From Phylloscopus collybita (lineage: Eukaryota > Chordata > Aves > Passeriformes > Phylloscopidae): 64,000 nt of DNA. Of this stretch, positions 1 to 51,779 are shown one piece after another. Both the position numbers and the translations under genes were made by a program. Where the stretch lies: positions 2,294,001-2,358,000 of the forward strand of contig JAJNNQ010000013.1 of assembly GCA_027886175.1 (NCBI GenBank), written 5' to 3'. How positions within the stretch are numbered: the first letter of the stretch is position 1; every line of letters starts with the position of its first letter. Below the pieces are notes generated by a model that saw nothing but the letters and a program-made list of their open reading frames with translations, ran no database searches and had not been told where the DNA came from.

Positions 1-46
1 TCATATCTCCTTTCCAGAGGGGTTGTTAGACTTTGTTCTCTGATTT

Positions 47-108
47 CAAGATTTCGTTCCCTTTCCTGAAAGGAAGACTTTCCTTTCAGGAAAGGGAACG
101 AAATCTTG
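47..108 (+). repeat. Representative 62-bp palindrome, perfect 29-bp stem
   Basis: The left arm begins CAAGATTTCGTTCCC and ends TGAAAGGAA, the spacer is GACT, and the right arm is the exact reverse complement of the left. The same structure recurs at every palindrome start listed for the blocks. By eye about 99 of 111 copies pair perfectly. Each arm also contains an imperfect inner dyad, CCTTTC-CT-GAAAGG, so alternative smaller hairpins are possible. As single-stranded DNA or RNA this would fold into a stable stem-loop, and as supercoiled DNA it could extrude a cruciform. Whether it does either in the cell is not shown by sequence. Confidence 0.98.
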
Positions 109-2308
109 CGAATTTAATGAGCATTAATTGGGCAAGCTTCCGTGCATTTCCCTGCACTTCTGGCCACCCCTGTCACTTTTATGGTTATCACTTGGTTTTG
201 TCATTTTTCCATGGTTTTTTTTCCATTTCATTTCTTAGACATCTTCCCCTATCTTTTGTTTTGCATGGCTTCCCTCATTCCTGGATTTAAATTGGAGTCA
301 TTTTTGGTAAGTCTTGGCCTTCTTCAGTGGCCCTCATTTCATCTCAGCCTGTTTGGTGGGAATCACTCCATTTCCAAATTTTCTCGGTTTTTTTCGCTCG
401 CGGAGTTTTGGGTCATATCTCCTTTCCAGAGGGGTTGTTAGACTTTGTTCTCTGATTTCAAGATTTCGTTCCCTTTCCTGAAAGGAAGACTTTCCTTTCA
501 GGAAAGGGAACGAAATCTTGCGATTTTAATGAGCATTAATTGGGCAAGCTTCCGTGCATTTCCCTGCACTTCTGGCCACCCCTGGCACTTTTATGGTTTT
601 CACTTGGTTTTGTTTTTTTTTTTTCCATGGTTTGATTTCAGTTTCATTTCTTAGACATCTTCTCCTATCTCTTGTTTTGCATCGTTTCTCCATTTCCAGG
701 ATTCAAATTAGAGTCATTTTTGGTAAGTCTTGGCCTTTTTCAGTGGCCCTCATTTCATCTCAGCCTGTTTGGTGGGAATCACTCCATTTCCAAATTTTCT
801 CAGTTTTTTTCGCTCGCGGAGTTTTGGGTCATATCTCCTTTCCAGAGGGGTTGTTAGACTTTGTTCTCTGATTTCAAGATTTCGTTCCCTTTCCTGAAAG
901 GAAGACTTTCCTTTCAGGAAAGGGAACGAAATCTTGCGATTTTAATGAGCATTAATTGGGCAAGCTTCCGTGCATTTCCCTGCACTTCTGGCCACCCCTG
1001 TCACTTTTATGGTTTTCACTTGTTTTTGTCATTTTTCCATGGTTTTTTTTCCATTTCATTTCTTAGACATCTTCCCCTATCTTTTGTTTTGCATCGCTTC
1101 CCTCATTCCTGGATTTAAATTGGAGTCATTTTTGGTAAGTCTTGGCCTTCTTCAGTGGCCCTCATTTCATCTCAGCCTGTTTGGTGGGAATCACTCCATT
1201 TCCAAATTTTCTCGGTTTTTTTCGCTCGCGGAGTTTTGGGTCATATCTCCTTTCCAGAGGGGTTGTTAGACTTTGTTCTCTGATTTCAAGATTTCGTTCC
1301 CTTTCCTGAAAGGAAGACTTTCCTTTCAGGAAAGGGAACGAAATCTTGCGATTTTAATGAGCATTAATTGGGCAAGCTTCCGTGCATTTCCCTGCACTTC
1401 TGGCCACCCCATTCACTTTTATGGTTTTCGCTTGCTTTTGTCATTTTTCCATGATTTTTTTTCCATTTCATTTCTTAGACATCTTCCCCTATCTTTTGTT
1501 TTGCATCGCTTCCCTCATTCCTGGATTTAAATTGGAGTCATTTTTGGTAAGTCTTGGCCTTTTTCAGTGGCCCTCATTTCATCTCAGCCTGTTTGGTGGG
1601 AATCACTCCATTTCCAAATTTTCTCGGTTTTTTTCGCTCGCGGAGTTTTGGGTCATATCTCCTTTCCAGAGGGGTTGTTAGACTTTGTTCTCTGATTTCA
1701 AGATTTCGTTCCCTTTCCTGAAAGGAAGACTTTCCTTTCAGGAAAGGGAACGAAATCTTGCGATTTTAATGAGCATTAATTGGGCAAGCTTCCGTGCATT
1801 TCCCTGCACTTCTGGCCACCCCTGTCACTTTTATGGTTTTCACTTGTTTTTGTCATTTTTCCATGGTTTTTTTTCCATTTCATTTCTTAGACATCTTCCC
1901 CTATCTTTTGTTTTGCATCGCTTCCCTCATTCCTGGATTTAAATTGGAGTCATTTTTGGTAAGTCTTGGCCTTTTTCAGTGGCCCTCATTTCATCTCAGC
2001 CTGTTTGGTGGGAATCACTCCATTTCCAAATTTTCTCGGTTTTTTTCGCTCGCGGAGTTTTGGGTCATATCTCCTTTCCAGAGGGGTTGTTAGACTTTGT
2101 TCTCTGATTTCAAGATTTCGTTCCCTTTCCTGAAAGGAAGACTTTCCTTTCAGGAAAGGGAACGAAATCTTGCGAATTTAATGAGCATTAATTGGGCAAG
2201 CTTCCGTGCATTTCCCTGCACTTCTGGCCACCCCTGGCACTTTTATGGTTTTCACTTGGTTTTGTTTCTTTTTTCCATGGTTTGATTTCAGTTTCATTTC
2301 TTAGACAT

Positions 2309-2378
2309 CTTCTCCTATCTCTTCTTTTGCGTCGCTTCTCCTTTTCCAGGATTCAAATTGGAATCATTTCTGGTAAGT
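2309..2378 (+). other. Splice-site-like signals in B-type monomers (example)
   Basis: A pyrimidine-rich run of about 40 nt ends in TTTTCCAG, followed by 23 nt (2,350-2,372) and then GTAAGT. This is the layout of an acceptor, a micro-exon and a consensus donor. B- and C-type family 1 monomers share it. A-type monomers keep the donor but have TTCCTGG in place of the acceptor, and family 2 has CCAG followed by a GCAAGT donor. No transcript is known from the sequence alone, so this is a pattern and not a called exon. Confidence 0.4.
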
Positions 2379-5300
2379 CTTGGCCTTTTTCAGTGGCCCT
2401 CATTTCATCTCAGCCTGTTTGGTGGGAATCACTCCATTTCCAAATTTTCTCGGTTTTTTTCGCTCGCGGAGTTTTGGGTCATATCTCCTTTCCAGAGGGG
2501 TTGTTAGACTTTGTTCTCTGATTTCAAGATTTCGTTCCCTTTCCTGAAAGGAAGACTTTCCTTTCAGGAAAGGGAACGAAATCTTGCGATTTTAATGAGC
2601 ATTAATTGGGCAAGCTTCCGTGCATTTCCCTGCACTTCTGGCCACCCCTGTCACTTTTACGGTTTTCACTTGTTTTTGTCATTTTTCCATGATTTTTTTT
2701 CCATTTCATTTCTTAGACATCTTCCCCTATCTTTTGTTTTGCATCGCTTCCCTCATTCCTGGATTTAAATTGGAGTCATTTTTGGTAAGTCTTGGCCTTT
2801 TTCAGTGGCCCTCATTTCATCTCAGCCTGTTTGGTGGGAATCACTCCATTTCCAAATTTTCTCGGTTTTTTTCGCTCGCGGAGTTTTGGGTCATATCTCG
2901 TTTCCAGAGGGGTTGTTAGACTTTGTTCTCTGATTTCAAGATTTCGTTCCCTTTCCTGAAAGGAAGACTTTCCTTTCAGGAAAGGGAACGAAATCTTGCG
3001 AATTTAATGAGCATTAATTGGGCAAGCTTCCGTGCATTTCCCTGCACTTCTGGCCACCCCTGTCACTTTTATGGTTTTTACTTGGTTTTGTTTCTTTTTT
3101 CCATGGTTTGATTTCAGTTTCATTTCTTAGACATCTTCTCCTATCTCTTGTTTTGCGTCGCTTCTCCTTTTCCAGGATTCAAATTGGAATCATTTCTGGT
3201 AAGTCTTGGCCTTTTTCAGTGGCCCTCATTTCATCTCAGCCTGTTTGGTGCGAATCACTCCATTTCCAAATTTTCTCGTTTTTTTTCGCTCGCGGAGTTT
3301 TGGGTCATATCTCCTTACCAGAGGGGTTGTTAGACTTTGTTCTCTGATTTCAAGATTTCGTTCCCTTTCCTGAAAGGAAGACTTTCCTTTCAGGAAAGGG
3401 AACGAAATCTTGCGATTTTAATGAGCATTAATTGGGCAAGCTTCCGTGCATTTCCCTGCACTTCTGGCCACCCCTGTCACTTTTATGGTTTTCACTTGTT
3501 TTTGTTATTTTTCCATGGTTTTTTTTCCATTTCATTTCTTAGACATCTTCCCCTATCTTTTGTTTTGCATCGCTTCCCTCATTCCTGGATTTAAATTGGA
3601 GTCATTTTTGGTAAGTCTTGGCCTTTTTCAGTGGCCCTCATTTCATCTCAGCCTGTTTGCTGGGAATCACTCCATTTCCAAATTTTCTCGGTTTTTTTCG
3701 CTCGCGGAGTTTTGGGTCATATCTCCTTTCCAGAGGGGTTGTTAGACTTTGTTCTCTGATTTCAAGATTTCGTTCCCTTTCCTGAAAGGAAGACTTTCCT
3801 TTCAGGAAAGGGAACGAAATCTTGCGATTTTAATGAGCATTAATTGGGCAAGCTTCCGTGCATTTCCCTGCCTTTCTGGCCACCCCTGTCACTTTTATGG
3901 TTTTCACTTGTTTTTGTTTATTTTCCATGTTTTTTTTTTCCATTTCATTTCTTAGACATCTTCCCCTATCTTTTGTTTTGCATCGCTTCTCCTTTTCCAG
4001 GATTCAAATTGGAGTCATTTCTGGTAAGACTTGGCCTTTTTCAGTGGCCCTCATTTCATCTCAGCCTGTTTGGTGGGAATCACTCCATTTCCAAATTTTC
4101 TCGGTTTTTTTCGCTCGCGGAGTTTTGGGTCATATCTCCTTTCCAGAGGGGTTGTTAGACTTTGTTCTCTGATTTCAAGATTTCGTTCCCTTTCCTGAAA
4201 GGAAGACTTTCCTTTCAGGAAAGGGAACGAAATCTTGCGATTTTAATGAGCATTAATTGGGCAAGCTTCCGTGCATTTCCCTGCACTTCTGGCCACCCCT
4301 GGCACTTTTATGGTTTTCACTTGTTTTTGTCATTTTTCCATGGTTTTTTTTCCATTTCATTTCTTAGGCATCTTCCCCTATCTTTTGTTTTGCATCGCTT
4401 CCCTCCTTCCTGGATTTAAATTGGAGTCATTTTTGGTAAGTCTTGGCCTTTTTCAGTGGCCCTCATTTCATCTCAGCCTGTTTGGTGGGAATCACTCCAT
4501 TTCCAAATTTTCTCGGTTTTTTTCGCTCGCGGAGTTTTGGGTCATATCTCCTTTCCAGAGGGGTTGTTAGACTTTGTTCTCTGATTTCAAGATTTCGTTC
4601 CCTTTCCTGAAAGGAAGACTTTCCTTTCAGGAAAGGGAACGAAATCTTGCGAATTTAATGAGCATTAATTGGGCAAGCTTCCGTGCATTTCCCTGCACTT
4701 CTGGCCACCCCTGTCACTTTTATGGTTTTCACTTGGTTTTGTTTCTTTTTTCCATGGTTTGATTTCAGTTTCATTTCTTAGACATCTTCTCCTATCTCTT
4801 GTTTTGCGTTGCTTCTCCTTTTCCAGGATTCAAATTGGAATCATTTCTGGTAAGTCTTGGCCTTTTTCAGTGGCCCTCATTTCATCTCAGCCTGTTTGGT
4901 GGCAATCACTCCATTTCCAAATTTTCTCGGTTTTTTTCGCTCGCGGAGTTTTGGGTCATATCTCCTTTCCAGAGGGGTTGTTAGACTTTGTTCTCTGATT
5001 TCAAGATTTCGTTCCCTTTCCTGAAAGGAAGACTTTCCTTTCAGGAAAGGGAACGAAATCTTGCGATTTTAATGAGCATTAATTGGGCAAGCTTCCGTGC
5101 ATTTCCCTGCACTTCTGGCCACCCCTGGCACTTTTATGGTTTTCACTTGTTTTTGTCATTTTTCCATGATTTTTTTTCCATTTCATTTCTTAGACATCTT
5201 CCCCTATCTTTTGTTTTGCATCACTTCCCTCATTCCTGGATTTAAATTGGAGTCATTTTTGGTAAGTCTTGGCCTTTTTCAGTGGCCCTCATTTCATCTC

Positions 5301-8300
5301 AGCCTGTTTGCTGGGAATCACTCCATTTCCAAATTTTCTCGGTTTTTTTCGCTCGCGGAGTTTTGGGTCATATCTCCTTTCCAGAGGGGTTGTTAGACTT
5401 TGTTCTCTGATTTCAAGATTTCGTTCCCTTTCCTGAAAGGAAGACTTTCCTTTCAGGAAAGGGAACGAAATCTTGCGATTTTAATGAGCATTAATTGGGC
5501 AAGCTTCCGTGCATTTCCCTGCACTTCTGGCCACCCCTGTCACTTTTACGGTTTTCACTTGGTTTTGTTTCTTTTTTCCATGGTTTGATTTCAGTTTCAT
5601 TTCTTAGACATCTTCTCCTATCTCTTGTTTTGCGTCGCTTCTCCTTTTCCAGGATTCAAATTGGAATCATTTCTGGTAAGTCTTGGCCTTTTTCAGTGGC
5701 CCTCATTTCATCTCAGCCTGTTTGGTGGGAATCACTCCATTTCCAAATTTTCTCGGTTTTTTTCGCTCGCGGAGTTTTGGGTCATATCTCCTTTCCAGAG
5801 GGGTTGTTAGACTTTGTTCTCTGATTTCAAGATTTCGTTCCCTTTCCTGAAAGGAAGACTTTCCTTTCAGGAAAGGGAACGAAATCTTGCGATTTTAATG
5901 AGCATTAATTGGGCAAGCTTCCGTGCATTTCCCTGCACTTCTGGCCACCCCTGGCACTTTTATGGTTTTCACTTGTTTTTGTCATTTTTCCATGGGTTTT
6001 TTTCCATTTCATTTCTTAGGCATCTTCCCCTATCTTTTGTTTTGCATCGCTTCCCTCCTTCCTGGATTTAAATTGGAGTCATTTTTGGTAAGTCTTGGCC
6101 TTTTTCAGTGGCCCTCATTTCATCTCAGCCTGTTTGGTGGGAATCACTCCATTTCCAAATTTTCTCGGTTTTTTTCGCTCGCGGAGTTTTGGGTCATATC
6201 TCGTTTCCAGAGGGGTTGTTAGACTTTGTTCTCTGATTTCAAGATTTCGTTCCCTTTCCTGAAAGGAAGACTTTCCTTTCAGGAAAGGGAACGAAATCTT
6301 GCGAATTTAATGAGCATTAATTGGGCAAGCTTCCATGCATTTCCCTGCACTTCTGGCCACCCCTGTCACTTTTATGGTTTTTACTTGGTTTTGTTTCTTT
6401 TTTCCATGGTTTGATTTCAGTTTCATTTCTTAGACATCTTCTCCTATCTCTTGTTTTGCGTCGCTTCTCCTTTTCCAGGATTCAAATTGGAATCATTTCT
6501 GGTAAGTCTTGGCCTTTTTCAGTGGCCCTCATTTCATCTCAGCCTGTTTGGTGCGAATCACTCCATTTCCAAATTTTCTCGTTTTTTTTCGCTCGCGGAG
6601 TTTAGGGTCATATCTCCTTACCAGAGCGGTTGTTAGACTTTGTTCTCTGATTTCAAGATTTCGTTCCCTTTCCTGAAAGGAAGACTTTCCTTTCAGGAAA
6701 GGGAACGAAATCTTGCGATTTTAATGAGCATTAATTGGGCAAGCTTCCGTGCATTTCCCTGCACTTCTGGCCACCCCTGGCACTTTTATGGTTTTCACTT
6801 GTTTTTGTTATTTTTCCATGGTTTTTTTTCCATTTCATTTCTTAGACATCTTCCCCTATCTTTTGTTTTGCATCGCTTCCCTCATTCCTGGATTTAAATT
6901 GGAGTCATTTTTGGTAAGTCTTGGCCTTTTTCAGTGGCCCTCATTTCATCTCAGCCTGTTTGGTGGGAATCACTCCATTTCCAAATTTTCTCGGTTTTTT
7001 TCGCTCGCGGAGTTTTGGGTCATATCTTCTTTCCAGAGGGGTTGTTAGACTTTGTTCTCTGATTTCAAGATTTCGTTCCCTTTCCTGAAAGGAAGACTTT
7101 CCTTTCAGGAAAGGGAACGAAATCTTGCGATTTTAATGAGCATTAATTGGGCAAGCTTCCATGCATTTCCCTGCACTTCTGGCCACCCCTGTCACTTTTA
7201 TGGTTTTCACTTGGTTTTGTTTCTTTTTTCCATGGTTTGATTTCAGTTTCATTTCTTAGACATCTTCTCCTATCTCTTGTTTTGCGTCGCTTCTCCTTTT
7301 CCAGGATTCAAATTGGAATCATTTCTGGTAAGTCTTGGCCTTTTTCAGTGGCCCTCATTTCATCTCAGCCTGTTTGGTGGGAATCACTCCATTTCCAAAT
7401 TTTCTCGGTTTTTTTCGCTCGCGGAGTTTTGGGTCATATCTCCTTTCCAGAGGGGTTGTTAGACTTTGTTCTCTGATTTCAAGATTTCGTTCCCTTTCCT
7501 GAAAGGAAGACTTTCCTTTCAGGAAAGGGAACGAAATCTTGCGATTTTAATGAGCATTAATTGGGCAAGCTTCCGTGCATTTCCCTGCACTTCTGGCCAC
7601 CCCTGGCACTTTTATGGTTTTCACTTGTTTTTGTCATTTTTCCATGGTTTTTTTTTCCATTTCATTTCTTAGGCATCTTCCCCTATCTTTTGTTTTGCAT
7701 CGCTTCCCTCCTTCCTGGATTTAAATTGGAGTCATTTTTGGTAAGTCTTGGCCTTTTTCAGTGGCCCTCATTTCATCTCAGCCTGTTTGGTGGGAATCAC
7801 TCCATTTCCAAATTTTCTCGGTTTTTTTCGCTCGCGGAGTTTTGGGTCATATCTCCTTTCCAGAGGGGTTGTTAGACTTTGTTCTCTGATTTCAAGATTT
7901 CGTTCCCTTTCCTGAAAGGAAGACTTTCCTTTCAGGAAAGGGAACGAAATCTTGCGAATTTAATGAGCATTAATTGGGCAAGCTTCCGTGCATTTCCCTG
8001 CACTTCTGGCCACCCCTGTCACTTTTATGGTTTTCACTTGGTTTTGTTTCTTTTTTCCATGGTTTGATTTCAGTTTCATTTCTTAGACATCTTCTCCTAT
8101 CTCTTGTTTTGCGTTGCTTCTCCTTTTCCAGGATTCAAATTGGAATCATTTCTGGTAAGTCTTGGCCTTTTTCAGTGGCCCTCATTTCATCTCAGCCTGT
8201 TTGGTGGCAATCACTCCATTTCCAAATTTTCTCGGTTTTTTTCGCTCGCGGAGTTTTGGGTCATATCTCCTTTCCAGAGGGGTTGTTAGACTTTGTTCTC

Positions 8301-10368
8301 TGATTTCAAGATTTCGTTCCCTTTCCTGAAAGGAAGACTTTCCTTTCAGGAAAGGGAACGAAATCTTGCGATTTTAATGAGCATTAATTGGGCAAGCTTC
8401 CGTGCATTTCCCTGCACTTCTGGCCACCCCTGGCACTTTTATGGTTTTCACTTGTTTTTGTCATTTTTCCATGATTTTTTTTCCATTTCATTTCTTAGAC
8501 ATCTTCCCCTATCTTTTGTTTTGCATCACTTCCCTCATTCCTGGATTTAAATTGGAGTCATTTTTGGTAAGTCTTGGCCTTTTTCAGTGGCCCTCATTTC
8601 ATCTCAGCCTGTTTGCTGGGAATCACTCCATTTCCAAATTTTCTCGGTTTTTTTCGCTCGCGGAGTTTTGGGTCATATCTCCTTTCCAGAGGGGTTGTTA
8701 GACTTTGTTCTCTGATTTCAAGATTTCGTTCCCTTTCCTGAAAGGAAGACTTTCCTTTCAGGAAAGGGAACGAAATCTTGCGATTTTAATGAGCATTAAT
8801 TGGGCAAGCTTCCGTGCATTTCCCTGCACTTCTGGCCACCCCTGTCACTTTTACGGTTTTCACTTGTTTTTGTTATTTTTCCATGGTTTTTTTTCCATTT
8901 CATTTCTTAGACATCTTCCCCTATCTTTTGTTTTGCATCGCTTCCCTCATTCCTGGATTTAAATTGGAGTCATTTTTGGTAAGTCTTGGCCTTCTTCAGT
9001 GGCCCTCATTTCACCTCAGCCTGTTTGGTGGGTATCACTCCATTTCCAAATTTTCTCGGTTTTTTTCGCTCGCGGAGTTTTGGGTCATATCTCCTTTCCA
9101 GAGGGGTTGTTAGACTTTGTTCTCTGATTTCAAGATTTCGTTCCCTTTCCTGAAAGGAAGACTTTCCTTTCAGGAAAGGGAACGAAATCTTGCGATTTTA
9201 ATGAGCATTAATTGGGCAAGCTTCCGTGCATTTCCCTGCACTTCTGGCCACCCTTGGCACTTTTATGGTTTTCACTTGTTTTTGTTATTTTTCCATGGGT
9301 TTTTTTCCATTTCATTTCTTAGACATCTTCCCCTATCTTTTATTTTGCATCGCTTCCCTCATTCCTGGATTTAAATTGGAGTCATTTTTGGTAAGTCTTG
9401 GCCTTTTTCAGTGGCCCTCATTTCATCTCAGCCTGTTTGGTGGGAATCACTCCATTTCCAAATTTTCTCGGTTTTTTTCGCTCGCGGAGTTTTGGGTCAT
9501 ATCTCCTTTCCAGAGGGGTTGTTAGACTTTGTTCTCTGATTTCAAGATTTCGTTCCCTTTCCTGAAAGGAAGACTTTCCTTTCAGGAAAGGGAACGAAAT
9601 CTTGCGATTTTAATGAGCATTAATTGGGCAAGCTTCCGTGCATTTCCCTGCACTTCTGGCCACCCCTGTCACTTTTATGGTTTTCACTTGGTTTTGTTTC
9701 TTTTTTCCATGGTTTGATTTCAGTTTCATTTCTTAGACATCTTCTCCTATCTCTTGTTTTGCGTCGCTTCTCCTTTTCCAGGATTCAAATTGGAATCATT
9801 TCTGGTAAGTCTTGGCCTTTTTCAGTGGCCCTCATTTCATCTCAGCCTGTTTGGTGGGAATCACTCCATTTCCAAATTTTCTCGGTTTTTTTCGCTCGCG
9901 GAGTTTTGGGTCATATCTCCTTTCCAGAGGGGTTGTTAGACTTTGTTCTCTGATTTCAAGATTTCGTTCCCTTTCCTGAAAGGAAGACTTTCCTTTCAGG
10001 AAAGGGAACGAAATCTTGCGATTTTAATGAGCATTAATTGGGCAAGCTTCCGTGCATTTCCCTGCACTTCTGGCCACCCCTGTCACTTTTACGGTTTTCA
10101 CTTGTTTTTGTTATTTTTCCATGGTTTTCTTTCCATTTCATTTCTTAGACATCTTCCCCTATCTTTTGTTTTGCATCGCTTCCCTCATTCCTGGATTTAA
10201 ATTGGAGTCATTTTTGGTAAGTCTTGGCCTTCTTCAGTGGCCCTCATTTCACCTCAGCCTGTTTGGTGGGTATCACTCCATTTCCAAATTTTCTCGGTTT
10301 TTTTCGCTCGCGGAGTTTTGGGTCATATCTCCTTTCCAGAGGGGTTGTTAGACTTTGTTCTCTGATTT

Positions 10369-10430
10369 CAAGATTTCGTTCCCTTTCCTGAATGGAAAGT
10401 CTTCCTTTCAGGAAAGGGAACGAAATCTTG
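10369..10430 (+). repeat. Palindrome with inverted spacer
   Basis: Here the centre reads GGAAAGTCTTCC instead of GGAAGACTTTCC, which is its exact reverse complement, so the GACT spacer has become AGTC. The left arm also has one change (TGAATGG for TGAAAGG), leaving one unpaired position. The flanking monomer is otherwise ordinary family 1. Confidence 0.95.
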
Positions 10431-19837: not shown

Positions 19838-19848
19838 GTTGTTAGACT

Positions 19849-33553: not shown

Positions 33554-36376
33554 AATGAGCATTCATTGGACAAGCTTGCGTCCATTTCCTTGCACTTCTG
33601 GCCACCCCAGTCACTTTTATGCTTTTTTGCTTGCTTTTAGCATTTTTCCTATTTTTTATATTTTTTGTCATTTATACAATATATTCTTCTGTCTTATTGT
33701 TTGAATTTCTTTCCTGATTCCAGGATTTAAATTGGAGCCATTTTGGCAAGTCAAGGCCATTTTAAGTGTCCCTCTTTTGATTTCAGTCCGTTGACAGGGA
33801 ATCACTCCATTTCCAAAATTTTTGGTTTTTTTCGCATGCGCTGTTTTGGGTCATATCTCCTTTCCAGAGGGGTTGTTAGACTTTGTTCTCTGATTTCAAG
33901 ATTTCGTTCCCTTTCCTGAAAGGAAGACTTTCCTTTCAGGAAAGGGAACGAAATCTTGCGATTTCAATGAGCATTCATTGGGCAAGCTTCCATGCATTTC
34001 CCTGCACTTCTGGCCACCCCTGTCACTTTTATGCTTTTTTGCTTCCTTTTAGCATTTTTCCTATTTTTTATATTAGTTTTCATTTACACAATATATTCTT
34101 CTGTCTTATTGTTTGAATTTGTTTCCTGATTCCAGGATTTAAATTGGAGCCATTTTGGCAAGTCAAGGCTTTTTTAATTGTCCCTCTTTTGAATTCAGGC
34201 CGTTGACAGGGAATCACTCCATTTCCAAAATTTTCGGGTTTTTTCTCATGCGCTGTTTTGGGTCATATCTCCTTTCCAGAGGGCTTGTTAGACTTTGTTC
34301 TCTGATTTCAAGATTTCGTTCCCTTTCCTGGAAGGAAGACTTTCCTTCCAGGAATAGGAACGAAATCTTGCGATTTCAATGAGCATTCATTGGACAAGCT
34401 TGCGTCCATTTCCTTGCACTTCTGGCCACCCCAGTCACTTCTATGCTTTTTGCTTGCTTTAAGCATTTTTCGTAATTTTTATATTAGTTTTCATTTACAC
34501 AATATATCCTTCAGTCTCATTCTTTGAATTTGTTTCCTCATTGCAGGATTTAAATTGGAGTCATTTTGGCAAGTCAAGGCCTTTTCCAGTGATCCTAATT
34601 TCACCTCAGTCGGTTGAGAGGGAATCACTCCATTTTCAAATTTTTCAGATTTTTGTTTTCGCATGCGCTGTTTTGGGTCATATCTCCTTTCCAGAGAGGT
34701 TGTTAGACTTTGTTCTCTGATTTCAAGATTTCGTTCCCTTTCCTGGAAGGAAGACTTTCCTTCCAGGAAAGGGAACGAAATCTTGCGATTTCAATGAGCA
34801 TTCATTGGACAAGCTTGCGTCCATTTCCTTGCACTTCTGGCCACCCCTGTCACTTTTATGCTTTTTTGCTTGCTTTTAGCATTTTTCCTATTTTTTATAT
34901 TTTTTGTCTTTTACACAATATATTCTTCTGTCTTATTGTTTGAATTTCTTTCCTGATTCCAGGATTTAAATTGGAGCCATTTTGGCAAGTCAAGGCCATT
35001 TTAAGTGTCCCTCTTTTGATTTCAGTCCGTTGACAGGGAATCACTCCATTTCCAAAATTTTTGGTTTTTTTCGCATGCGCTGTTTTGGGTCATATCTCCT
35101 TTCCAGAGGGCTTGTTAGACTTTGTTCTCTGATTTCAAGATTTCGTTCCCTTTCCTGGAAGGAAGACTTTCCTTCCAGGAAAGGGAACGAAATCTTGCGA
35201 TTTCAATGAGCATTCATTGGACAAGCTTGCGTCCATTTCCTTGCACTTCTGGCCACCCCAGTCACTTCTATGCTTTTCGCTTGCTTTTAGCATTTTTCGT
35301 ATTTTTTTTATTAGTTTTCATTTATACAATATATCCTTCGGTCTCATTTTTTGAATTTGTTTCCTCATTGCAGGATTTAAATGGGAGCCATTTTGGCAAG
35401 TCAAGGCCTTTTCCAGTGATCCTAATTTCACCTCAGTCGGTTGAGAGGGAATCACTCCATTTTCATATTTTTTGGGGTTTTTTTTCAATTGCGCTGTTTT
35501 GGGTCATATCTCCTTTCCAGAGGGCTTGTTAGACTTTGTTCTCTGATTTCAAGATTTCGTTCCCTTTCCTGGAAGGAAGACTTTCCTTCCAGGAAAGGGA
35601 ACGAAATATTGCGATTTCAATGAGCATTCATTGGACAAGCTTGCGTCCATTTCCTTGCACTTCTGGCCACCCCAGTCACTTTTATGCTTTTTTGCTTGCT
35701 TTTAGCATTTTTCCTATTTTTTATATTTTTTGTCATTTACACAATATATTCTTCTGTCTTATTGTTTGAATTTGTTTCCTGATTCCAGGATTTAAATGGG
35801 AGCCATTTTGGCAAGTCAAGGCCATTTTAAGTGTCCCTCTTTTGATTTCAGTCCGTTGACAGGGAATCACTCCATTTCCAAAATTTTTGGTTTTTTTCGC
35901 ATGCGCTGTTTTGGGTCATATCTCCTTTCCAGAGGGCTTGTTAGACTTTGTTCTCTGATTTCAAGATTTCGTTCCCTTTCCTGAAAGGAAGACTTTCCTT
36001 TCAGGAAAGGGAACGAAATCTTGCGATTTCAATGAGCATTCATTGGGCAAGCTTGCGTCCATTTCCTTGCACTTCTGGCCACCACAGTCACTTCTATGCT
36101 TTTTGCTTGCTTTTAGCATTTTTCGTAATTTTTTTATTAGTTTTCATTTGCATAATATATCCTTCTGTCTCATTCTTTGAATTTGTTTCTTGATTCCAGG
36201 ATTTAAATTGGAGTCATTTTGGTATGTCAAGGCCTTTTCCAGTGAACCTAATTTCATCTCTGTCCGTGGAGGGGGAATCACTCCATTTTCAAATTTTTCG
36301 GATTTTTGTTTTCGCATGCGCTGTTTTGGGTCATATCTCCTTTCCAGAGGGCTTGTTAGACTTTGTTCTCTGATTT
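33554..36376 (+). repeat. Satellite family 2, block 2 (7 palindromes)
   Basis: Palindromes start at 33485 (shared junction monomer), 33897, 34309, 34724, 35136, 35550 and 35962. The block matches 16,214-19,837 almost base for base at an offset of 17,340 up to about 35,770, including the same rare changes: an altered right arm in the copy from 34,295 and GAAATATTGCG after the palindrome in the copy from 35,536. Two monomers present in the first copy (18,608 and 19,022) are missing as separate units. The right junction to family 1 lies between a family 2 base at 36,352 and a family 1 base at 36,445, so it brackets the palindrome. Confidence 0.93.
35536..35947 (+). repeat. Chimeric monomer at a two-monomer deletion
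   Basis: The left part carries GAAATATTGCG, otherwise seen only in the monomer from 18,196. The right part carries GAATTTGTTTCC and TTTAAATGGGAGCC, as in the monomer from 19,022. In the first super-repeat copy those two monomers are 826 bp apart. The chimera therefore marks an exchange that removed exactly two monomers, with a breakpoint between about 35,606 and 35,773. Confidence 0.88.
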
Positions 36377-38436
36377 CAAGATTTCGTTCCCTTTCCTGAA
36401 AGGAAGACTTTCCTTTCAGGAAAGGGAACGAAATCTTGCGATTTTAATGAGCATTAATTGGGCAAGCTTCCGTGCATTTCCCTGCACTTCTGGCAACCCC
36501 TGTCACTTTTATGGTTTTCACTTGTTTTTGTTTATTTTCCATGGTTTTTTTTCCATTTCATTTCTTAGACATCTTCCCCTATCTTTTGTTTTGCATCGCT
36601 TCCCTCATTCCTGGATTTAAATTGGAGTCATTTTTGGTAAGTCTTGGCCTTTTTCAGTGGCCCTCATTTCATCTCAGCCTGTTTGGTGGGAATCACTCCA
36701 TTTCCAAATTTTCTCGGGTTTTTTCGCTCGCGGAGTTTTGGGTCATATCTCCTTTCCAGAGGGGTTGTTAGACTTTGTTCTCTGATTTCAAGATTTCGTT
36801 CCCTTTCCTGAAAGGAAAGTCTTCCTTTCAGGAAAGGGAACGAAATCTTGCGATTTTAATGAGCATTAATTGGGCAAGCTTCCGTGCATTTCCCTGCACT
36901 TCTGGCCACCCCTGTCACTTTTATGGTTTTCACTTGGTTTTGTTTATTTTCCATGGTTTTTTTTCCATTTCATTTCTTAGACATCTTCCCCTATCTTTTG
37001 TTTTGCATCGCTTCCCTCATTCCTGGATTTAAATTGGAGTAATTTTTGGTAAGTCTTGGCCTTTTTCAGTGGCCCTCATTTCATCTCAGCCTGTTTGGTG
37101 GGAATCACTCCATTTCCAAATTTTCTCGGGTTTTTTCGCTCGCGGAGTTTTGGGTCATATCTCCTTTCCAGAGGGGTTGTTAGACTTTGTTCTCTGATTT
37201 CAAGATTTCGTTCCCTTTCCTGAAAGGAAGACTTTCCTTTCAGGAAAGGGAACGAAATCTTGCGATTTTAATGAGCATTAATTGGGCAAGCTTCCGTGCA
37301 TTTCCCTGCACTTCTGGCCGCCCCTGTCACTTTTATGGTTTTCACTTGGTTTTGTTTATTTTCCATGGTTTTTTTTCCATTTCATTTCTTAGACATCTTC
37401 CCCTATCTTTTGTTTTGCATCGCTTCCCTCATTCCTGGATTTAAATTGGAGTCATTTTTGGTAAGTCTTGGCGTTTTTCAGTGGCCCTCATTTCATCTCA
37501 GCCTGTTTGGTGGGAATCACTCTATTTCCAAATTTTCTCGGTTTTTTTCGCTCACGGAGTTTTGGGTCATATCTCCTTTCCAGAGGGGTTGTTAGACTTT
37601 GTTCTCTGATTTCAAGATTTCGTTCCCTTTCCTGAAAGGAAGACTTTCCTTTCAGGAAAGGGAACGAAATCTTGCGATTTTAATGAGCATTAATTGGGCA
37701 AGCTTCCGTCCATTTCCCTGCACTTCTGGCCACCCCTGTCACTTTTATGGTTTTCACTTGTTTTTGTTTATTTTCCATGGTTTTTTTTCCATTTCATTTC
37801 TTAGACATCTTCCCCTATCTTTTGTTTTGCATCGCTTCTCCTTTTCCAGGATTCAAATTGGAGTCATTTCTGGTAAGTCTTGGCCTTTTTCAGTGGCCCT
37901 CATTTCATCTCAGCCTGTTTGGTGGGAATCACTCCATTTCCAAATTTTCTCGGTTTTTTTCGCTCGCGGAGTTTTGGGTCATATCTCCTTTCCAGAGGGG
38001 TTGTTAGACTTTGTTCTCTGATTTCAAGATTTCGTTCCCTTTCCTGAAAGGAAGACTTTCCTTTCAGGAAAGGGAACGAAATCTTGCGATTTTAATGAGC
38101 ATTAATTGGGCAAGCTTCTGTGCATTTCCCTGCACTTCTGGCCACCCCTGTCACTTTTATGGTTTTCACTTGTTTTTGCTTATTTTCCATGGTTTGTTTT
38201 CCATTTCATTTCTTAGACATCTTCTCCTATCTCTTGTTTTGCATCGCTTCTCCTTTTCCAGGATTCAAATTGGAGTCATTTCTGGTAAGTCTTGGCCTTT
38301 TTCAGTGGCCCTCATTTCATCTCAGCCTGTTTGGTGGGAATCACTCCATTTCCAAATTTTCTCGGTTTTTTTCGCTCGCGGAGTTTTGGGTCATATCTCC
38401 TTTCCAGAGGGGTTGTTAGACTTTGTTCTCTGATTT
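36377..38436 (+). repeat. Satellite family 1, block 3 (5 palindromes)
   Basis: Five family 1 monomers separate two family 2 blocks. Palindromes start at 36377, 36789, 37201, 37613 and 38025. The second has its 4-nt spacer inverted. The copies from 37,599 and 38,011 use the C-type ending with CTTCTCCTTTTCCAGG. The left junction is bracketed by 36,352 and 36,445, and the right junction by 38,412 (family 1 base) and 38,505 (family 2 base). Both intervals contain the palindrome, so the exact switch point cannot be placed within it. Confidence 0.92.
36789..36850 (+). repeat. Second palindrome with inverted spacer
   Basis: The centre again reads GGAAAGTCTTCC, with both arms otherwise perfect. Its monomer differs from the one at 10,355 elsewhere (TTTGTTTATTTTCCATGG and GGAGTAATTTTTGG), so the two inversions are either independent or have since been moved by conversion. 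Confidence 0.95.
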
Positions 38437-41400
38437 CAAGATTTCGTTCCCTTTCCTGAAAGGAAGACTTTCCTTTCAGGAAAGGGAACGAAATCTTGCG
38501 ATTTCAATGAGCATTCATTGGGCAAGCTTGAGTCCATTTCCTTGCACTTCTGGCCACCCCAGTCACTTTTATGCTTTTTTGCTTGCTTTTAGCATTTTTC
38601 CTATTTTTTATATTAGTTTTCATTTACACAATATATTCTTCTGTCTTATTGTTTGAATTTGTTTCCTGATTCCAGGATTTAAATGGGAGCCATTTTGGCA
38701 AGTCAAGGCCATTTTAAGTGTCCCTCTTTTGATTTCAGTCCGTTGACAGGGAATCACTCCATTTCCAAAATTTTTGGTTTTTTTCGCATGCGCTGTTTTG
38801 GGTCATATCTCCTTTCCAGAGGGCTTGTTAGACTTTGTTCTCTGATTTCAAGATTTCGTTCCCTTTCCTGAAAGGAAGACTTTCCTTTCAGGAAAGGGAA
38901 CGAAATCTTGCGATTTCAATGAGCATTCATTGGGCAAGCTTGCGTCCATTTCCTTGCACTTCTGGCCACCCCAGTCACTTCTATGCTTTTTGCTTGCTTT
39001 AGGCATTTTTCGTATTTTTTTTATTAGTTTTCATTTACACAATATATCCTTCAGTCTCATTCTTTGAATTTGTTTCCTCATTGCAGGATTTAAATTGGAG
39101 TCATTTTGGCAAGACAATGCCTTTTCCAGTGATCCTAATTTCACCTCAGTCGGTGGAGAGGGAATCACTCCATTTTCATATTTTTTGGGGTTTTTTTCGA
39201 TTGCGCTGTTTTGGGTCATATCTCCTTTCCAGAGGGCTTGTTAGACTTTGTTCTCTGATTTCAAGATTTCGTTCCCTTTCCTGAAAGGAAGACTTTCCTT
39301 TCAGGAAAGGGAACGAAATCTTGCGATTTCAATGAGCATTCATTGGGCAAGCTTGCGTCCATTTCCTTGCACTTCTGGCCACCCCAGTCACTTTTATGCT
39401 TTTTTGCTTCCTTTTAGCATTTTTCCTATTTTTTATATTAGTTTTCATTTACACAATATATTCTTCTGTCTTATTGTTTGAATTTGTTTCCTGATTCCAG
39501 GATTTAAATTGGAGCCATTTTGGCAAGTCAAGGCCATTTTAATTGTCCCTCTTTTGAATTCAGGCCGTTGACAGGGAATCACTCCATTTCCAAAATTTTT
39601 GGTTTTTTTCTCATGCGCTGTTTTGGGTCATATCTCCTTTCCAGAGGGCTTGTTAGACTTTGTTCTCTGATTTCAAGATTTCGTTCCCTTTCCTGGAAGG
39701 AAGACTTTCCTTTCAGGAAAGGGAACGAAATCTTGCGATTTCAATGAGCATTCATTGGGCAAGCTTCCATGCATTTCCCTGCACTTCTGGCCACCCCTGT
39801 CACTTTTATGCTTTTTTGCTTCCTTTTAGCATTTTTCCTATTTTTTATATTAGTTTTCATTTACACAATATATTCTTCTGTCTTATTGTTTGAATTTGTT
39901 TCCTGATTCCAGGATTTAAATTGGAGCCATTTTGGCAAGTCAAGGCCATTTTAATTGTCCCTCTTTTGAATTCAGGCCGTTGACAGGGAATCACTCCATT
40001 TCCAAAATTTTTGGTTTTTTTCTCATGCGCTGTTTTGGGTCATATCTCCTTTCCAGAGGGCTTGTTAGACTTTGTTCTCTGATTTCAAGATTTCGTTCCC
40101 TTTCCTGGAAGGAAGACTTTCCTTCCAGGAAAGGGAACGAAATCTTGCGATTTCAATGAGCATTCATTGGACAAGCTTGCGTCCATTTCCTTGCACTTCT
40201 GGCCACCCCAGTCACTTCTATGCTTTTTGCTTGCTTTAAGCATTTTTCGTAATTTTTATATTAGTTTTCATTTACACAATATATCCTTCAGTCTCATTCT
40301 TTGAATTTGTTTCCTCATTGCAGGATTTAAATTGGAGTCATTTTGGCAAGTCAAGGCCTTTTCCAGTGATCCTAATTTCACCTCAGTCGGTTGAGAGGGA
40401 ATCACTCCATTTTCAAATTTTTCGGATTTTTGTTTTCGCATGCGCTGTTTTGGGTCATATCTCCTTTCCAGAGAGGTTGTTAGACTTTGTTCTCTGATTT
40501 CAAGATTTCGTTCCCTTTCCTGGAAGGAAGACTTTCCTTCCAGGAAAGGGAACGAAATCTTGCGATTTCAATGAGCATTCTTTGGACAAGCTTGCGTCCA
40601 TTTCCTTGCACTTCTGGCCACCCCAGTCACTTTTATGCTTTTTTGCTTGCTTTTAGCATTTTTCCTATTTTTTATATTTTTTGTCATTTACACAATATAT
40701 TCTTCTGTCTTATTGTTTGAATTTCTTTCCTGATTCCAGGATTTAAATTGGAGCCATTTTGGCAAGTCAAGGCCATTTTAAGTGTCCCTCTTTTGATTTC
40801 AGTCCGTTGACAGGGAATCACTCCATTTCCAAAATTTTTGGTTTTTTTCGCATGCGCTGTTTTGGGTCATATCTCCTTTCCAGAGGGCTTGTTAGACTTT
40901 GTTCTCTGATTTCAAGATTTCGTTCCCTTTCCTGAAAGGAAGACTTTCCTTTCAGGAAAGGGAACGAAATCTTGCGATTTCAATGAGCATTCATTGGGCA
41001 AGCTTGCGTCCATTTCCTTGCACTTCTGGCCACCCCAGTCACTTTTATGCTTTTTTGCTTCCTTTTAGCATTTTTCCTATTTTTTATATTAGTTTTCATT
41101 TACACAATATATTCTTCTGTCTTATTGTTTGAATTTGTTTCCTGATTCCAGGATTTAAATTGGAGCCATTTTGGCAAGTCAAGGCCATTTTAATTGTCCC
41201 TCTTTTGAATTCAGGCCGTTGACAGGGAATCACTCCATTTCCAAAATTTTTGGTTTTTTTCTCATGCGCTGTTTTGGGTCATATCTCCTTTCCAGAGGGC
41301 TTGTTAGACTTTGTTCTCTGATTTCAAGATTTCGTTCCCTTTCCTGGAAGGAAGACTTTCCTTCCAGGAATAGGAACGAAATCTTGCGATTTCAATGAGC

Positions 41401-44400
41401 ATTCATTGGACAAGCTTGCGTCCATTTCCTTGCACTTCTGGCCACCCCAGTCACTTCTATGCTTTTTGCTTGCTTTAAGCATTTTTCGTATTTTTTATAT
41501 TAGTTTTCATTTACACAATATATCCTTCAGTCTCATTCTTTGAATTTGTTTCCTCATTGCAGGATTTAAATTGGAGTCATTTTGGCAAGACAAGGCCTTT
41601 TCCAGTGATCCTAATTTCACCTCAGTCGGTGGAGAGGGAATCACTCCATTTTCATATTTTTTGGGGTTTTTTTCGATTGCGCTGTTTTGGGTCATATCTC
41701 CTTTCCAGAGGGCTTGTTAGACTTTGTTCTCTGATTTCAAGATTTCGTTCCCTTTCCTGAAAGGAAGACTTTCCTTCCAGGAAAGGGAACGAAATCTTGC
41801 GATTTCAATGAGCATTCATTGGACAAGCTTGCGTCCATTTCCTTGCACTTCTGGCCACCCCAGTCACTTTTATGCTTTTTTGCTTGCTTTTAGCATTTTT
41901 CCTATTTTTTATATTTTTTGTCATTTACACAATATATTCTTCTGTCTTATTGTTTGAATTTCTTTCCTGATTCCAGGATTTAAATTGGAGCCATTTTGGC
42001 AAGTCAAGGCCATTTTAAGTGTCCCTCTTTTGATTTCAGTCCGTTGACAGGGAATCACTCCATTTCCAAAATTTTTGGTTTTTTTCGCATGCGCTGTTTT
42101 GGGTCATATCTCCTTTCCAGAGGGGTTGTTAGACTTTGTTCTCTGATTTCAAGATTTCGTTCCCTTTCCTGAAAGGAAGACTTTCCTCCCAGGAAAGGGA
42201 ACGAAATCTTGCGATTTCAATGAGCATTCATTGGGCAAGCTTCCATGCATTTCCCTGCACTTCTGGCCACCCCTGTCACTTTTATGCTTTTTTGCTTCCT
42301 TTTAGCATTTTTCCTATTTTTTATATTAGTTTTCATTTACACAATATATTCTTCTGTCTTATTGTTTGAATTTGTTTCCTGATTCCAGGATTTAAATTGG
42401 AGCCATTTTGGCAAGTCAAGGCCATTTTAATTGTCCCTCTTTTGAATTCAGGCCGTTGACAGGGAATCACTCCATTTCCAAAATTTTTGGTTTTTTTCTC
42501 ATGCGCTGTTTTGGGTCATATCTCCTTTCCAGAGGGCTTGTTAGACTTTGTTCTCTGATTTCAAGATTTCGTTCCCTTTCCTGGAAGGAAGACTTTCCTT
42601 CCAGGAAAGGGAACGAAATCTTGCGATTTCAATGAGCATTCATTGGACAAGCTTGCGTCCATTTCCTTGCACTTCTGGCCACCCCAGTCACTTCTATGCT
42701 TTTTGCTTGCTTTAAGCATTTTTCGTAATTTTTATATTAGTTTTCATTTACACAATATATCCTTCAGTCTCATTCTTTGAATTTGTTTCCTCATTGCAGG
42801 ATTTAAATTGGAGTCATTTTGGCAAGTCAAGGCCTTTTCCAGTGATCCTAATTTCACCTCAGTCGGTTGAGAGGGAATCACTCCATTTTCAAATTTTTCG
42901 GATTTTTGTTTTCGCATGCGCTGTTTTGGGTCATATCTCCTTTCCAGAGGGCTTGTTAGACTTTGTTCTCTGATTTCAAGATTTCGTTCCCTTTCCTGAA
43001 AGGAAGACTTTCCTTTCAGGAAAGGGAACGAAATCTTGCGATTTCAATGAGCATTCATTGGACAAGCTTGCGTCCATTTCCTTGCACTTCTGGCCACCCC
43101 AGTCACTTTTATGCTTTTTGCTTGCTTTAAGCATTTTTCGTATTTTTTATATTAGTTTTCATTTACACAATATATCCTTCTGTCTCATTCTTTGAATTTG
43201 TTTCCTCATTGCAGGATTTAAATTGGAGTCATTTTGGCAAGTCAAGGCCTTTTCCATTGGTCCTAATTTCACCTCAGTCGGTTGAGAGGGAATCACTCCA
43301 TTTTCATATTTTTTGGGGTTTTTTTTCGATTGCGCTGTTTTGGGTCATATCTCCTTTCCAGAGGGCTTGTTAGACTTTGTTCTCTGATTTCAAGATTTCG
43401 TTCCCTTTCCTGAAAGGAAGACTTTCCTTTCAGGAAAGGGAACGAAATCTTGCGATTTCAATGAGCATTCATTGGACAAGCTTGCGTCCATTTCCTTGCA
43501 CTTCTGGCCACCCCAGTCACTTTTATGCTTTTTTGCTTGCTTTTAGCATTTTTCCTATTTTTTATATTTTTTGTCTTTTACACAATATATTCTTCTGTCT
43601 TATTGTTTGAATTTGTTTCCTGATTCCAGGATTTAAATGGGAGCCATTTTGGCAAGTCAAGGCCATTTTAAGTGTCCCTCTTTTGATTTCAGTCCGTTGA
43701 CAGGGAATCACTCCATTTCCAAAATTTTTGGTTTTTTTCGCATGCGCTGTTTTGGGTCATATCTCCTTTCCAGAGGGCTTGTTAGACTTTGTTCTCTGAT
43801 TTCAAGATTTCATTCCCTTTCCTGAAAGGAAGACTTTCCTTTCAGGAAAGGGAACGAAATCTTGCGATTTCAATGAGCATTCATTGGGCAAGCTTGCGTC
43901 CATTTCCTTGCACTTCTGGCCACCACAGTCACTTCTATGCTTTTTGCTTGCTTTTAGCATTTTTCGTAATTTTTTTATTAGTTTTCATTTGCATAATATA
44001 TCCTTCTGTCTCATTCTTTGAATTTGTTTCTTGATTCCAGGATTTAAATTGGAGTCATTTTGGTATGTCAAGGCCTTTTCCAGTGAACCTAATTTCATCT
44101 CTGTCCGTGGAGGGGGAATCACTCCATTTTCAAATTTTTCGGATTTTTGTTTTCGCATGCGCTGTTTTGGGTCATATCTCCTTTCCAGAGGGCTTGTTAG
44201 ACTTTGTTCTCTGATTTCAAGATTTCGTTCCCTTTCCTGAAAGGAAGACTTTCCTTTCAGGAAAGGGAACGAAATCTTGCGATTTCAATGAGCATTCATT
44301 GGACAAGCTTGCGTCCATTTCCTTGCACTTCTGGCCACCCCAGTCACTTTTATGCTTTTTGCTTGCTTTAAGCATTTTTCGTATTTTTTATATTTTTTGT

Positions 44401-45444
44401 CATTTACACAATATATCCTTCTGTCTCATTCTTTGAATTTGTTTCCTCATTGCAGGATTTAAATTGGAGTCATTTTGGCAAGTCAAGGCCTTTTCCAGTG
44501 GTCCTAATTTCAGCTCAGTCGGTTGAGAGGGAATCACTCCATTTTCATATTTTTTGGGGTTTTTTTTCGATTGCGCTGTTTTGGGTCATATCTCCTTTCC
44601 AGAGGGCTTGTTAGACTTTGTTCTCTGATTTCAAGATTTCGTTCCCTTTCCTGAAAGGAAGACTTTCCTCTCAGGAAAGGGAACGAAATCTTGCGATTTT
44701 AATGAGCATTCATTGGACAAGCTTGCGTCCATTTCCTTGCACTTCTGGCCACCCCAGTCACTTTTATGCTTTTTGCTTGCTTTAAGCATTTTTCGTATTT
44801 TTTATATTAGTTTTCATTTACACAATATATCCTTCTGTCTCATTCTTTGAATTTGTTTCTTGATTCCAGGATTAAAATTGGAGTCATTTTCGTATGTCAA
44901 GGCCTTTTCCAGTGAACCTAATTTCATCTCTGTCCGTGGAGGGGGAATCACTCCATTTTCAAATTTTTCGGATTTTTGTTTTCGATTGCGCTGTTTTGGG
45001 TCATATCTCCTTTCCAGAGGGCTTGTTAGACTTTGTTCTCTGATTTCAAGATTTCGTTCCCTTTCCTGGAAGGAAGACTTTCCTCCCAGGAAAGGGAACG
45101 AAATCTTGCGATTTCAATGAGCATTCATTGGACAAGCTTGCGTCCATTTCCTTGCACTTCTGGCCACCCCAGTCACTTTTATGCTTTTTTGCTTGCTTTT
45201 AGCATTTTTCCTATTTTTTATATTTTTTGTCATTTACACAATATATTCTTCTGCCTTATTGTTTGAATTTGTTTCCTGATTCCAGGATTTAAATTAGAGC
45301 CATTTTGGCAAGTCAAGGCCATTTTAAGTGTCCCTCTTTTGAATTCAGTCCGTTGACAGGGAATCACTCCATTTCCAAAATTTTTGGTTTTTTTCGCATG
45401 CGCTGTTTTGGGTCATATCTCCTTTCCAGAGGGCTTGTTAGACT
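38437..45444 (+). repeat. Satellite family 2, block 3 (to the array edge)
   Basis: Family 2 monomers run to the array edge. Palindromes start at 38437, 38849, 39262, 39674, 40086, 40501, 40913, 41325, 41738, 42150, 42562, 42977, 43391, 43803, 44218, 44632 and 45047, with one more in the edge monomer at 45459. Subtypes with TTTTAATTGTCCC, TTTTAAGTGTCCC and CCAGTGATCC alternate irregularly. Palindrome defects are enriched here: 39674, 41325, 41738, 42150, 43803, 44632 and 45047 each have one or more unpaired positions. More variation towards the edge is the usual pattern for satellites, where unequal exchange homogenises the interior more than the ends. Confidence 0.92.
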
Positions 45445-45782
45445 TTGTTCTCTGATTTCAAGATTTCGTTCCCTTTCCTGAAAGGAAGACTTTCCTTTCA
45501 GGAAAGGGAACGAAATCTTGCGATTTCAATGAGCATTCATTGGGCAAGCTTGCGTCCATTTCCCTGCACTTCTGGCCACCCCAGTCACTTCTATGCTTTT
45601 CGCTTGCTTTTAGCATTTTTCCTGGTTTTTTTATTACATTTCATTTCGTCAACATCTTTTTCTGTCTCTTGTTTTCATTTTCTTCTCTGAGTCCAGGATT
45701 TATATTGGAGTCACTATGCAAGTCTAGGCCTTTTTAAGTGGTCCTCATTTTACTTCTGTCCGTTTAGGAGGAATCACTCCAT
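45445..45782 (+). repeat. Diverged, truncated edge monomer
   Basis: The last unit has an intact palindrome (45,459-45,520) but its downstream half differs from both families. It starts like family 2 (CATTGGGCAAGCTTGCGTCC), yet its middle resembles family 1 (TTTCATTTCGTCAACATC against TTTCATTTCTTAGACATC, and CTGTCTCTTGTTTTC). It keeps CCAGGATTTATATTGGAGTC and GAGGAATCACTCCAT, then repeat similarity stops at about 45,782. About 75 bp of monomer, including the CpG-containing end, are missing. It may be an old monomer frozen at the boundary or a mosaic of both families. Confidence 0.9.
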
Positions 45783-48206: not shown

Positions 48207-48237
<31 letters not shown>

Positions 48238-48273
48238 ACCACAAAAAAAAAAACCACCACAAAAAAAAAAACC
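48207..48273 (+). repeat. Poly(A) with CCACCAC interruptions
   Basis: A run of 29 A is followed by CCACCAC, 11 A, CCACCAC, 11 A and CC. The A11-CCACCAC unit of 18 nt is repeated. It could be an expanded poly(A) tail of an old retrocopy, but no body of such an element is recognisable upstream. Confidence 0.9.
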
Positions 48274-49884: not shown

Positions 49885-49889
49885 AGGTA

Positions 49890-50496: not shown

Positions 50497-50501
50497 AGGT
50501 A

Positions 50502-51751: not shown

Positions 51752-51779
51752 CTTTAGAGCAGAGTTTTCTGCTCTAAAG
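51752..51779. repeat. Perfect 12-bp inverted repeat, 4-nt loop
   Basis: CTTTAGAGCAGA and TCTGCTCTAAAG are exact reverse complements separated by GTTT. The stem is too short for a typical microRNA precursor and there is no T-run after it. It could be a chance palindrome or a small structured site. Confidence 0.85.

What the first reader, a model, noticed from the sequence alone, without database searches (positions are those of the whole stretch)
1..45782. A satellite in which every monomer carries a 62-bp near-perfect palindrome
All 111 monomers contain the same two 29-nt arms around a 4-nt spacer, and about 99 pair perfectly by eye. The roughly 110 bp from TCATATCTCC to the end of the palindrome have essentially one fixed difference between families 1 and 2, while the rest of the monomer differs by many substitutions and indels. 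Conservation focused on a palindrome inside a fast-evolving repeat suggests either selection on a structure (cruciform, protein-binding site or RNA hairpin) or conversion concentrated there.
Basis: partly seen in the sequence, partly recalled or inferred. Interest (0 to 1): 0.75.

Follow-up and report, generated by a model that had tools for sequence, protein, structure and literature searches.

The report
Bird satellite with self-flipping hairpin palindrome
A tandem DNA repeat in a bird genome carries in nearly every copy a 62-letter palindrome whose four-letter centre has been turned around in a few percent of copies, which suggests that the palindrome folds back on itself and copies its own arms; a conserved stretch beside it probably does a job that is not yet known.

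Summary
Window 1-45784 holds 111 monomers of 412-416 bp. Each carries a 29+4+29 bp palindrome; 99 of 111 pair perfectly, 91 are identical. Genome-wide there are at least 9208 palindromes with up to 3 mismatches, on at least five contigs. The conserved part is a ~110-bp box, not the palindrome alone: 1 fixed family difference in 109 columns against 67 in 303 (p 5e-9), and the 46 bp left of the palindrome are less diverse than the arms. New: the spacer GACT is exactly inverted to AGTC in 252 copies against 8779 uninverted, with 0 for a reversed-spacer control, and three arm pairs show compensated changes. These are known marks of template switching at inverted repeats. Best reading: the pairing is kept by mutational self-copying plus array amplification, not by strict selection (105 of 603 sampled copies mispair; a 5-bp arm deletion has spread). 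The box is probably under sequence constraint, perhaps a protein-binding site. Recurrence of flips and a centromere role are unproven. New variant of a known kind.

The parts
1..45784 (+). satellite array, 111 monomers of 412-416 bp, head to tail; right-hand part of a ~59-kb array whose left end lies 13.7 kb before the window
1..412 (+). monomer 1, showing the layout: columns 1-46 conserved left flank, 47-108 palindrome, 109-180 moderately conserved, 181-280 T-rich variable part, 281-412 variable part
1..46 (+). conserved left flank of the box (first copy); lower diversity than the arms in both families
47..108 (.). palindrome (first copy): arms 47-75 and 80-108, spacer GACT 76-79
10369..10430 (.). 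palindrome of monomer 26: spacer inverted to AGTC (10398-10401), plus an unpaired A25T
36789..36850 (.). palindrome of monomer 90: spacer inverted to AGTC (36818-36821), arms intact
17338..18163 (+). monomers 43-44 of family 2: compensated arm change A23G/T40C, perfectly paired
45001..45412 (+). monomer 110: A23G/T40C with an extra uncompensated T39C
16923..34262 (+). one period (~17.3 kb, 42 monomers) of a recent long duplication inside the array; monomers 34-45 and 76-87 differ by 0-4 columns each
45785..64000 (.). flank without satellite remnants (nhmmer --max), without Rfam or tRNA match, and without Pfam match in the 26 of 45 open frames scanned

Best explanation
This is a large satellite family of a bird whose monomer has a ~110-bp conserved box: a 46-bp flank plus a 62-bp palindrome. 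The palindrome can form a hairpin. Now and then a replicating strand switches template between the two arms, copies arm and spacer from the other strand, and switches back. This turns the spacer around (GACT to AGTC) and carries arm mutations across to the partner arm, so the arms stay largely matched without each pair being selected. Array amplification then spreads the results. The 46-bp flank cannot be kept this way, so it is probably held by constraint on its sequence, most simply a protein-binding or nucleosome-phasing site in satellite chromatin. Shown: the sequence facts, the inversions, the compensated changes, the lower divergence of the box, no leak of family-2 arm alleles into family 1. 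Inferred: template switching as the event, constraint as the cause of the box. Unknown: the binding protein, and whether the arrays are centromeres.
For: Oriented 73-mer with up to 2 mismatches: GACT 8779 copies, AGTC 252, TCAG control 0. All four bases change; no partly inverted spacer was seen among 603 sampled palindromes. Flips sit on backgrounds 1.3-24.5% away from the family-1 consensus outside the box, including one family-2 copy (L009:7588), although family-2 arm alleles are not seen in family 1. Three distinct compensated arm pairs (A23G/T40C, C20G/G43C, T21G/A42C) against 0.21 expected from random placement, P 0.001; all lie 6-9 bp from the loop. Single-side forms of A23G, T40C and C20G exist. 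Abraham and Hazkani-Covo (PMC8604942; abstract and one results section read) describe these two marks, arm homogenisation and inversion of 2-5 bp spacers, as template switching in yeast; Monttinen and Loytynoja (PMC8794818; abstract, first paragraphs and outline seen) report the same process making and maintaining hairpins in RNA genes. Box: 1 of 109 against 67 of 303 fixed differences.
Against: Many independent flips are not proven. On a tree of 635 copies the 29 flips need 18 changes (shuffled labels 28.7 on average), and per copy point variants scatter as much or more (C53T 12 for 19, A25C 9 for 12, T8C 9 for 11, spacer GACG 10 for 14); one old flip spread by exchange could give much of the pattern. 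Flips were seen in 7 of 10 sampled arrays, which 2 of 96 point variants of similar frequency reach (2 of 29 once those mostly private to the window's array are set aside), but I had chosen several stretches because flips were listed there, so this comparison is biased. The 5-bp deletion is spread as widely. Only three compensated pairs stand against 29 distinct arm changes without a compensated partner, and the chance estimate treats 17 related haplotypes as independent. Cutting and rejoining of a cruciform could also turn the spacer. The low divergence of the box might reflect a lower mutation rate.
Confidence: 0.6

Rival explanations
1. Selection for a structure: the cruciform or hairpin itself (or its RNA) is functional, for instance as a signal for CENP-A loading, and mispaired copies are removed.
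For: 99 of 111 monomers pair perfectly; compensated changes; very stable hairpin. Talbert and Henikoff (PMC8997354, passages read) review that many centromeres, chicken included, are rich in short dyad symmetries predicted to extrude cruciforms.
Against: 105 of 603 sampled palindromes mispair and 50 further copies have a 5-bp deletion. Imperfect forms have been amplified: C53T (18 sampled copies) and the 5-bp deletion (126 exact copies). Arms are more diverse than the unpaired left flank. The dyads reviewed for those centromeres are short (<10 bp).
Confidence: 0.2
2. Conversion or breakage concentrated at the palindrome homogenises the box between families.
For: Palindromes are prone to breakage (established knowledge; cf. 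the listing), and the palindrome lies within the conserved box. Column 22 shows some shared alleles: family-2 state in 7 of 594 family-1 copies, family-1 state in 11 of 56 family-2 copies.
Against: A23G (29 of 56 family-2 copies) and T40C (23 of 56) occur in 0 of 87 and 0 of 86 family-1 copies of the same array and 0 of 508 and 0 of 459 elsewhere.
Confidence: 0.12
3. No function: the pattern is a low mutation rate in part of the monomer plus neutral amplification, and the palindrome is a frozen accident of the founding monomer.
For: Satellite amplification alone keeps copies alike; columns 181-280 are T-rich and probably prone to slippage.
Against: Columns 281-412 have 25 fixed differences in 132 against 1 in 109 (p 1.4e-6). 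The more diverse family 2 shows the same contrast within itself (0.014 in columns 1-46 against 0.10 in 281-412). This view alone does not produce spacer inversion.
Confidence: 0.2
4. The flipped spacers are assembly or sequencing artefacts of a hairpin-prone template.
For: Palindromes are hard templates.
Against: Flipped copies recur in blocks (9 of 15 sampled monomers at C6:139801-146000, several identical to each other outside the palindrome), as inherited amplified variants do, and the TCAG control is 0. Reads were not available.
Confidence: 0.04

Closest known systems
Inverted-repeat spacer inversion by template switching in yeast genes (Abraham and Hazkani-Covo 2021, PMC8604942; abstract and one section read)
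   Same: short perfect arms, 2-5 bp spacer turned around as a unit, arms homogenised, flips recurrent at some loci
   Different: single-copy coding genes with arms of 10-16 bp; here 29-bp arms repeated thousands of times in a vertebrate satellite
Template switching that makes and keeps RNA hairpins (Monttinen and Loytynoja 2022, PMC8794818; abstract, first paragraphs and outline seen)
   Same: compensated changes in a stem explained by one copying event
   Different: RNA genes, where structure is also selected
Satellites with long dyads inside the monomer: Tribolium madens TmSat2, with Trichogramma brassicae and T. brevicornis cited in the same paper (PMC13081366; passages read)
   Same: an inverted repeat inside the monomer of an abundant satellite
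   Different: arms of 80 bp (T. brassicae) and about 300 bp, imperfect (TmSat2); no spacer flipping in the passages read
Chicken CNM (41 bp) and W-linked sate-21 with conserved dyad symmetry (PMC9974502; passages read)
   Same: bird satellites with a conserved dyad
   Different: short monomers; sate-21 has a very short dyad (TTTTCnnnnnGAAAA); the passages show no sequence like this one
Minute inversions at chloroplast hairpins (recalled; one search listed papers that use the term, none read)
   Same: hairpin loop turned around while the stem stays
   Different: organelle DNA, single loci

Membership tests
satellite DNA | long head-to-tail arrays of a non-coding monomer, homogenised within the genome | tested here: met
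   111 monomers in the window; at least 9208 palindromes genome-wide; arrays spanning 59 kb on C13 and at least 295 kb on C40 (the latter sampled, not read through)
satellite with an intramonomeric palindrome | inverted repeat inside the monomer in nearly all copies | tested here: met
   9785 left flanks (28-mer, up to 3 mismatches) against 9208 palindromes with up to 3 mismatches
template-switch inverted repeat | spacer inverted as a unit with intact arms | tested here: met
   252 AGTC, 8779 GACT, 0 TCAG
template-switch inverted repeat | arm homogenisation (compensated changes above chance) | tested here: met
   3 distinct pairs, 0.21 expected, P 0.001; small numbers, related haplotypes
template-switch inverted repeat | recurrent independent flips | tested here: inconclusive
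   several backgrounds, one in family 2, but tree scatter no greater than that of point variants
centromeric satellite | binds CENP-A, lies at the primary constriction | not testable with these tools
   no ChIP or FISH data; contigs C6, C7, C13 and C40 carry arrays at or within a few kb of their starts and C24 near its end, but C7 has three arrays in 19 Mb and C13 and C40 two each, which argues against a centromere-only location
CENP-B box satellite | NTTCGNNNNANNCGGGN motif | tested here: not met
   best match in the consensus 7 of 9 fixed bases, outside the box
known RNA family | Rfam match at gathering score | tested here: not met
   0 matches in the window; the 25 matches are all below their gathering scores, mostly microRNA hairpin models

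The most novel reading that the evidence does not exclude
The 46-bp flank and the palindrome form one centromere or heterochromatin module. A sequence-specific protein opens the palindrome into a cruciform in every monomer, the cruciform recruits the chromatin loader, and the same extrusion causes the template switches that keep the arms matched, so that the spacer orientation records how often copies have been opened.
Probability: 0.1. Interest if true: 0.85.

Novelty: new variant of a known kind. Interest (0 to 1): 0.5.

Why it matters
Thousands of copies of one palindrome in one genome, each with an asymmetric 4-bp spacer that shows which way round it is, could serve as a natural counter for hairpin-mediated template switching in a vertebrate germ line. 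It also shows how a palindrome in a satellite may stay matched without selection on each pair, so that perfect pairing alone is weak evidence for a functional cruciform. The unpaired 46-bp neighbour, better conserved than the arms, is the more promising place to look for a bound protein.

Tried and rejected

Sampling notes. Loci L001-L008 (cut out) overlap other stretches and were left out of the counts from then on; L011 and L028 gave no monomer hit. Of 674 monomer hits in the final set, 21 were cut by stretch ends and 50 had an internal 5-bp gap in the palindrome; 603 were counted. L029-L033, L040 and L041 were fetched because flips were listed there, so 30 of 603 overstates the flip rate; 252 of 9031 (2.8%) is the genome-wide figure for copies within 2 mismatches of the 73-mer. 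The numbers of changes per haplotype in the chance simulation were typed by hand (a slip was corrected).

Full report
What is there. The window is C13:2294001-2358000 of an unnamed 1.247-Gb assembly in 517 contigs, a bird by its alpha-A globin (species of the matched chains recalled). Tandem Repeats Finder gives one array, 1-45782, period 412. A profile search cuts it into 111 monomers, all on the + strand, ending at 45784. The array runs 13.7 kb further left, to C13:2280307. Its two ends fall at nearly the same monomer phase (column 376 on the left; 373 on the right), as if a whole number of monomers had been put in at one place.

The palindrome. It is 62 bp, columns 47-108, arms of 29 and spacer GACT. 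As single-stranded DNA it folds at -33.8 kcal/mol, z -12.3.

The box. Average linkage gives families of 77 and 34 monomers. Their consensus sequences differ at 1 of 109 columns from 1 to 109 and at 67 of 303 beyond (p 5e-9; against columns 281-412 alone, 25 of 132, p 1.4e-6; against 110-180, 7 of 71, p 0.007). In the larger sample (616 family-1 and 56 family-2 copies) the mean between-family difference is 0.024 in columns 1-46, 0.027 in the arms, 0.097 in 110-180, 0.40 in 181-280 and 0.19 in 281-412. Within families the left flank is less diverse than the arms (0.0052 against 0.0071 in family 1; 0.0144 against 0.0317 in family 2). So conservation is not focused on the palindrome; columns 31-60, which straddle its left border, are the quietest of the stretches compared. 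All 56 family-2 copies lie in the window's array, so the between-family test rests on one array.

Size and place. The 62-mer with up to 3 mismatches occurs 9208 times, the backward control 0 times. The 28-mer of the flank occurs 9785 times. Arrays were seen on C6 (from its start), C7 (start, 6.5-6.95 Mb, and near its 19.0-Mb end), C13 (start and the window's array), C24 (within its last 0.25 Mb) and C40 (start and 5.36-5.65 Mb). The lists show only the first 100 places, so other contigs may carry it. Several contigs begin in an array, as expected of long satellites, but two or three arrays per contig argue against a location at centromeres only.

The flipped spacer. Monomers 26 and 90 carry AGTC, the reverse complement of GACT, with all four bases changed. 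Genome-wide, the oriented 73-mer (11 bp of flank plus palindrome) with up to 2 mismatches gives 8779 GACT, 252 AGTC and 0 for the reversed spacer TCAG. In the sample of 603 complete palindromes the spacers are GACT 547, AGTC 30, GACG 14, GAAT 6, GCCT 5, GAGT 1; no half-turned form occurs. Flipped copies come in blocks and several are identical outside the palindrome at C6, so they look inherited and amplified rather than read errors. They lie on monomers 1.3 to 24.5% away from the family-1 consensus outside the box, one of them of family 2.

Arms. 498 of 603 pair perfectly. Three pairs show compensated double changes: A23G/T40C (in the sample only in the window's array; ten exact 73-mers in the genome, all there), C20G/G43C and T21G/A42C (one copy each). 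Random placement of the same numbers of changes gives 0.21 (P 0.001; related haplotypes counted as independent). All three lie 6-9 bp from the loop. But 29 other distinct arm changes have no compensated partner; the most frequent arm haplotype, C53T, and G54A, G10A and C9T are at CpG sites; and a 5-bp deletion in the right arm has 126 exact copies on at least five contigs.

Mechanism. An exact inversion of the spacer with intact arms, together with arm changes carried over to the partner, is what template switching between inverted repeats leaves. PMC8604942 reports ten such spacer inversions in yeast genes, only with arms over 9 bp, recurrent in four genes, and PMC8794818 reports that the same process can create and maintain hairpins. 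I therefore take template switching, or another hairpin-mediated exchange, as the most likely event (about 0.75 on its own), with array amplification spreading its products. Whether the 252 flips are many events or few is open: on a tree of 635 copies the 29 flips need 18 changes (28.7 with shuffled labels), but point variants scatter alike, and my stretches were partly chosen for flips.

What the box does. Hairpin copying cannot keep the left flank. Exchange between families is not a good answer, since A23G and T40C, in 29 and 23 of 56 family-2 copies, are in 0 of 595 and 0 of 545 family-1 copies that have the column; column 22 does show a little sharing. Constraint on the sequence is the simplest reading (about 0.5), with a lower mutation rate as alternative. 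No CENP-B box and no RNA family were found. A link to cruciforms at centromeres (reviewed in PMC8997354, passages read) is possible but untested.

Comparison. Satellites with long intramonomeric dyads are known from insects (PMC13081366, passages read), and chicken satellites have short dyads (PMC9974502, passages read). Among the papers listed by searches (12 of 45, 15 of 61 and 8 of 449; open-licence papers only, titles, term counts and starts of abstracts seen) none was seen to describe spacer flipping in a satellite.

Noticed in passing
L009:6307 and window 45784: The C13 array begins at monomer column 376 and ends at column 373, nearly the same phase, as if a circle or whole-number block had been inserted. 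The C40 array ends at column 321 instead.
   Followed up: partly
window 14000-36000: A recent ~17.3-kb duplication (42 monomers) inside the array: monomers 34-45 and 76-87 differ by 0-4 columns each.
   Followed up: partly
window 1-45784 against 45785-64000: CpG observed/expected is 0.52 in the array and 0.07 in the right flank; the array is either young or little methylated in the germ line.
   Followed up: no
C6, C7, C13, C24, C40 (126 exact places, 100 listed): A 5-bp deletion in the right arm recreates there the word CTTTCCTGAAAGG of the left arm; it may itself be a template-switch or slippage product.
   Followed up: partly
window 1-45784: Strong strand asymmetry of the array (AT skew -0.33 to -0.44 in 2-kb windows, T-rich + strand) that stops at the array edge.
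   Followed up: no
L009:5950-6025: An AAGAG-type simple repeat lies about 280 bp before the left end of the array.
   Followed up: no
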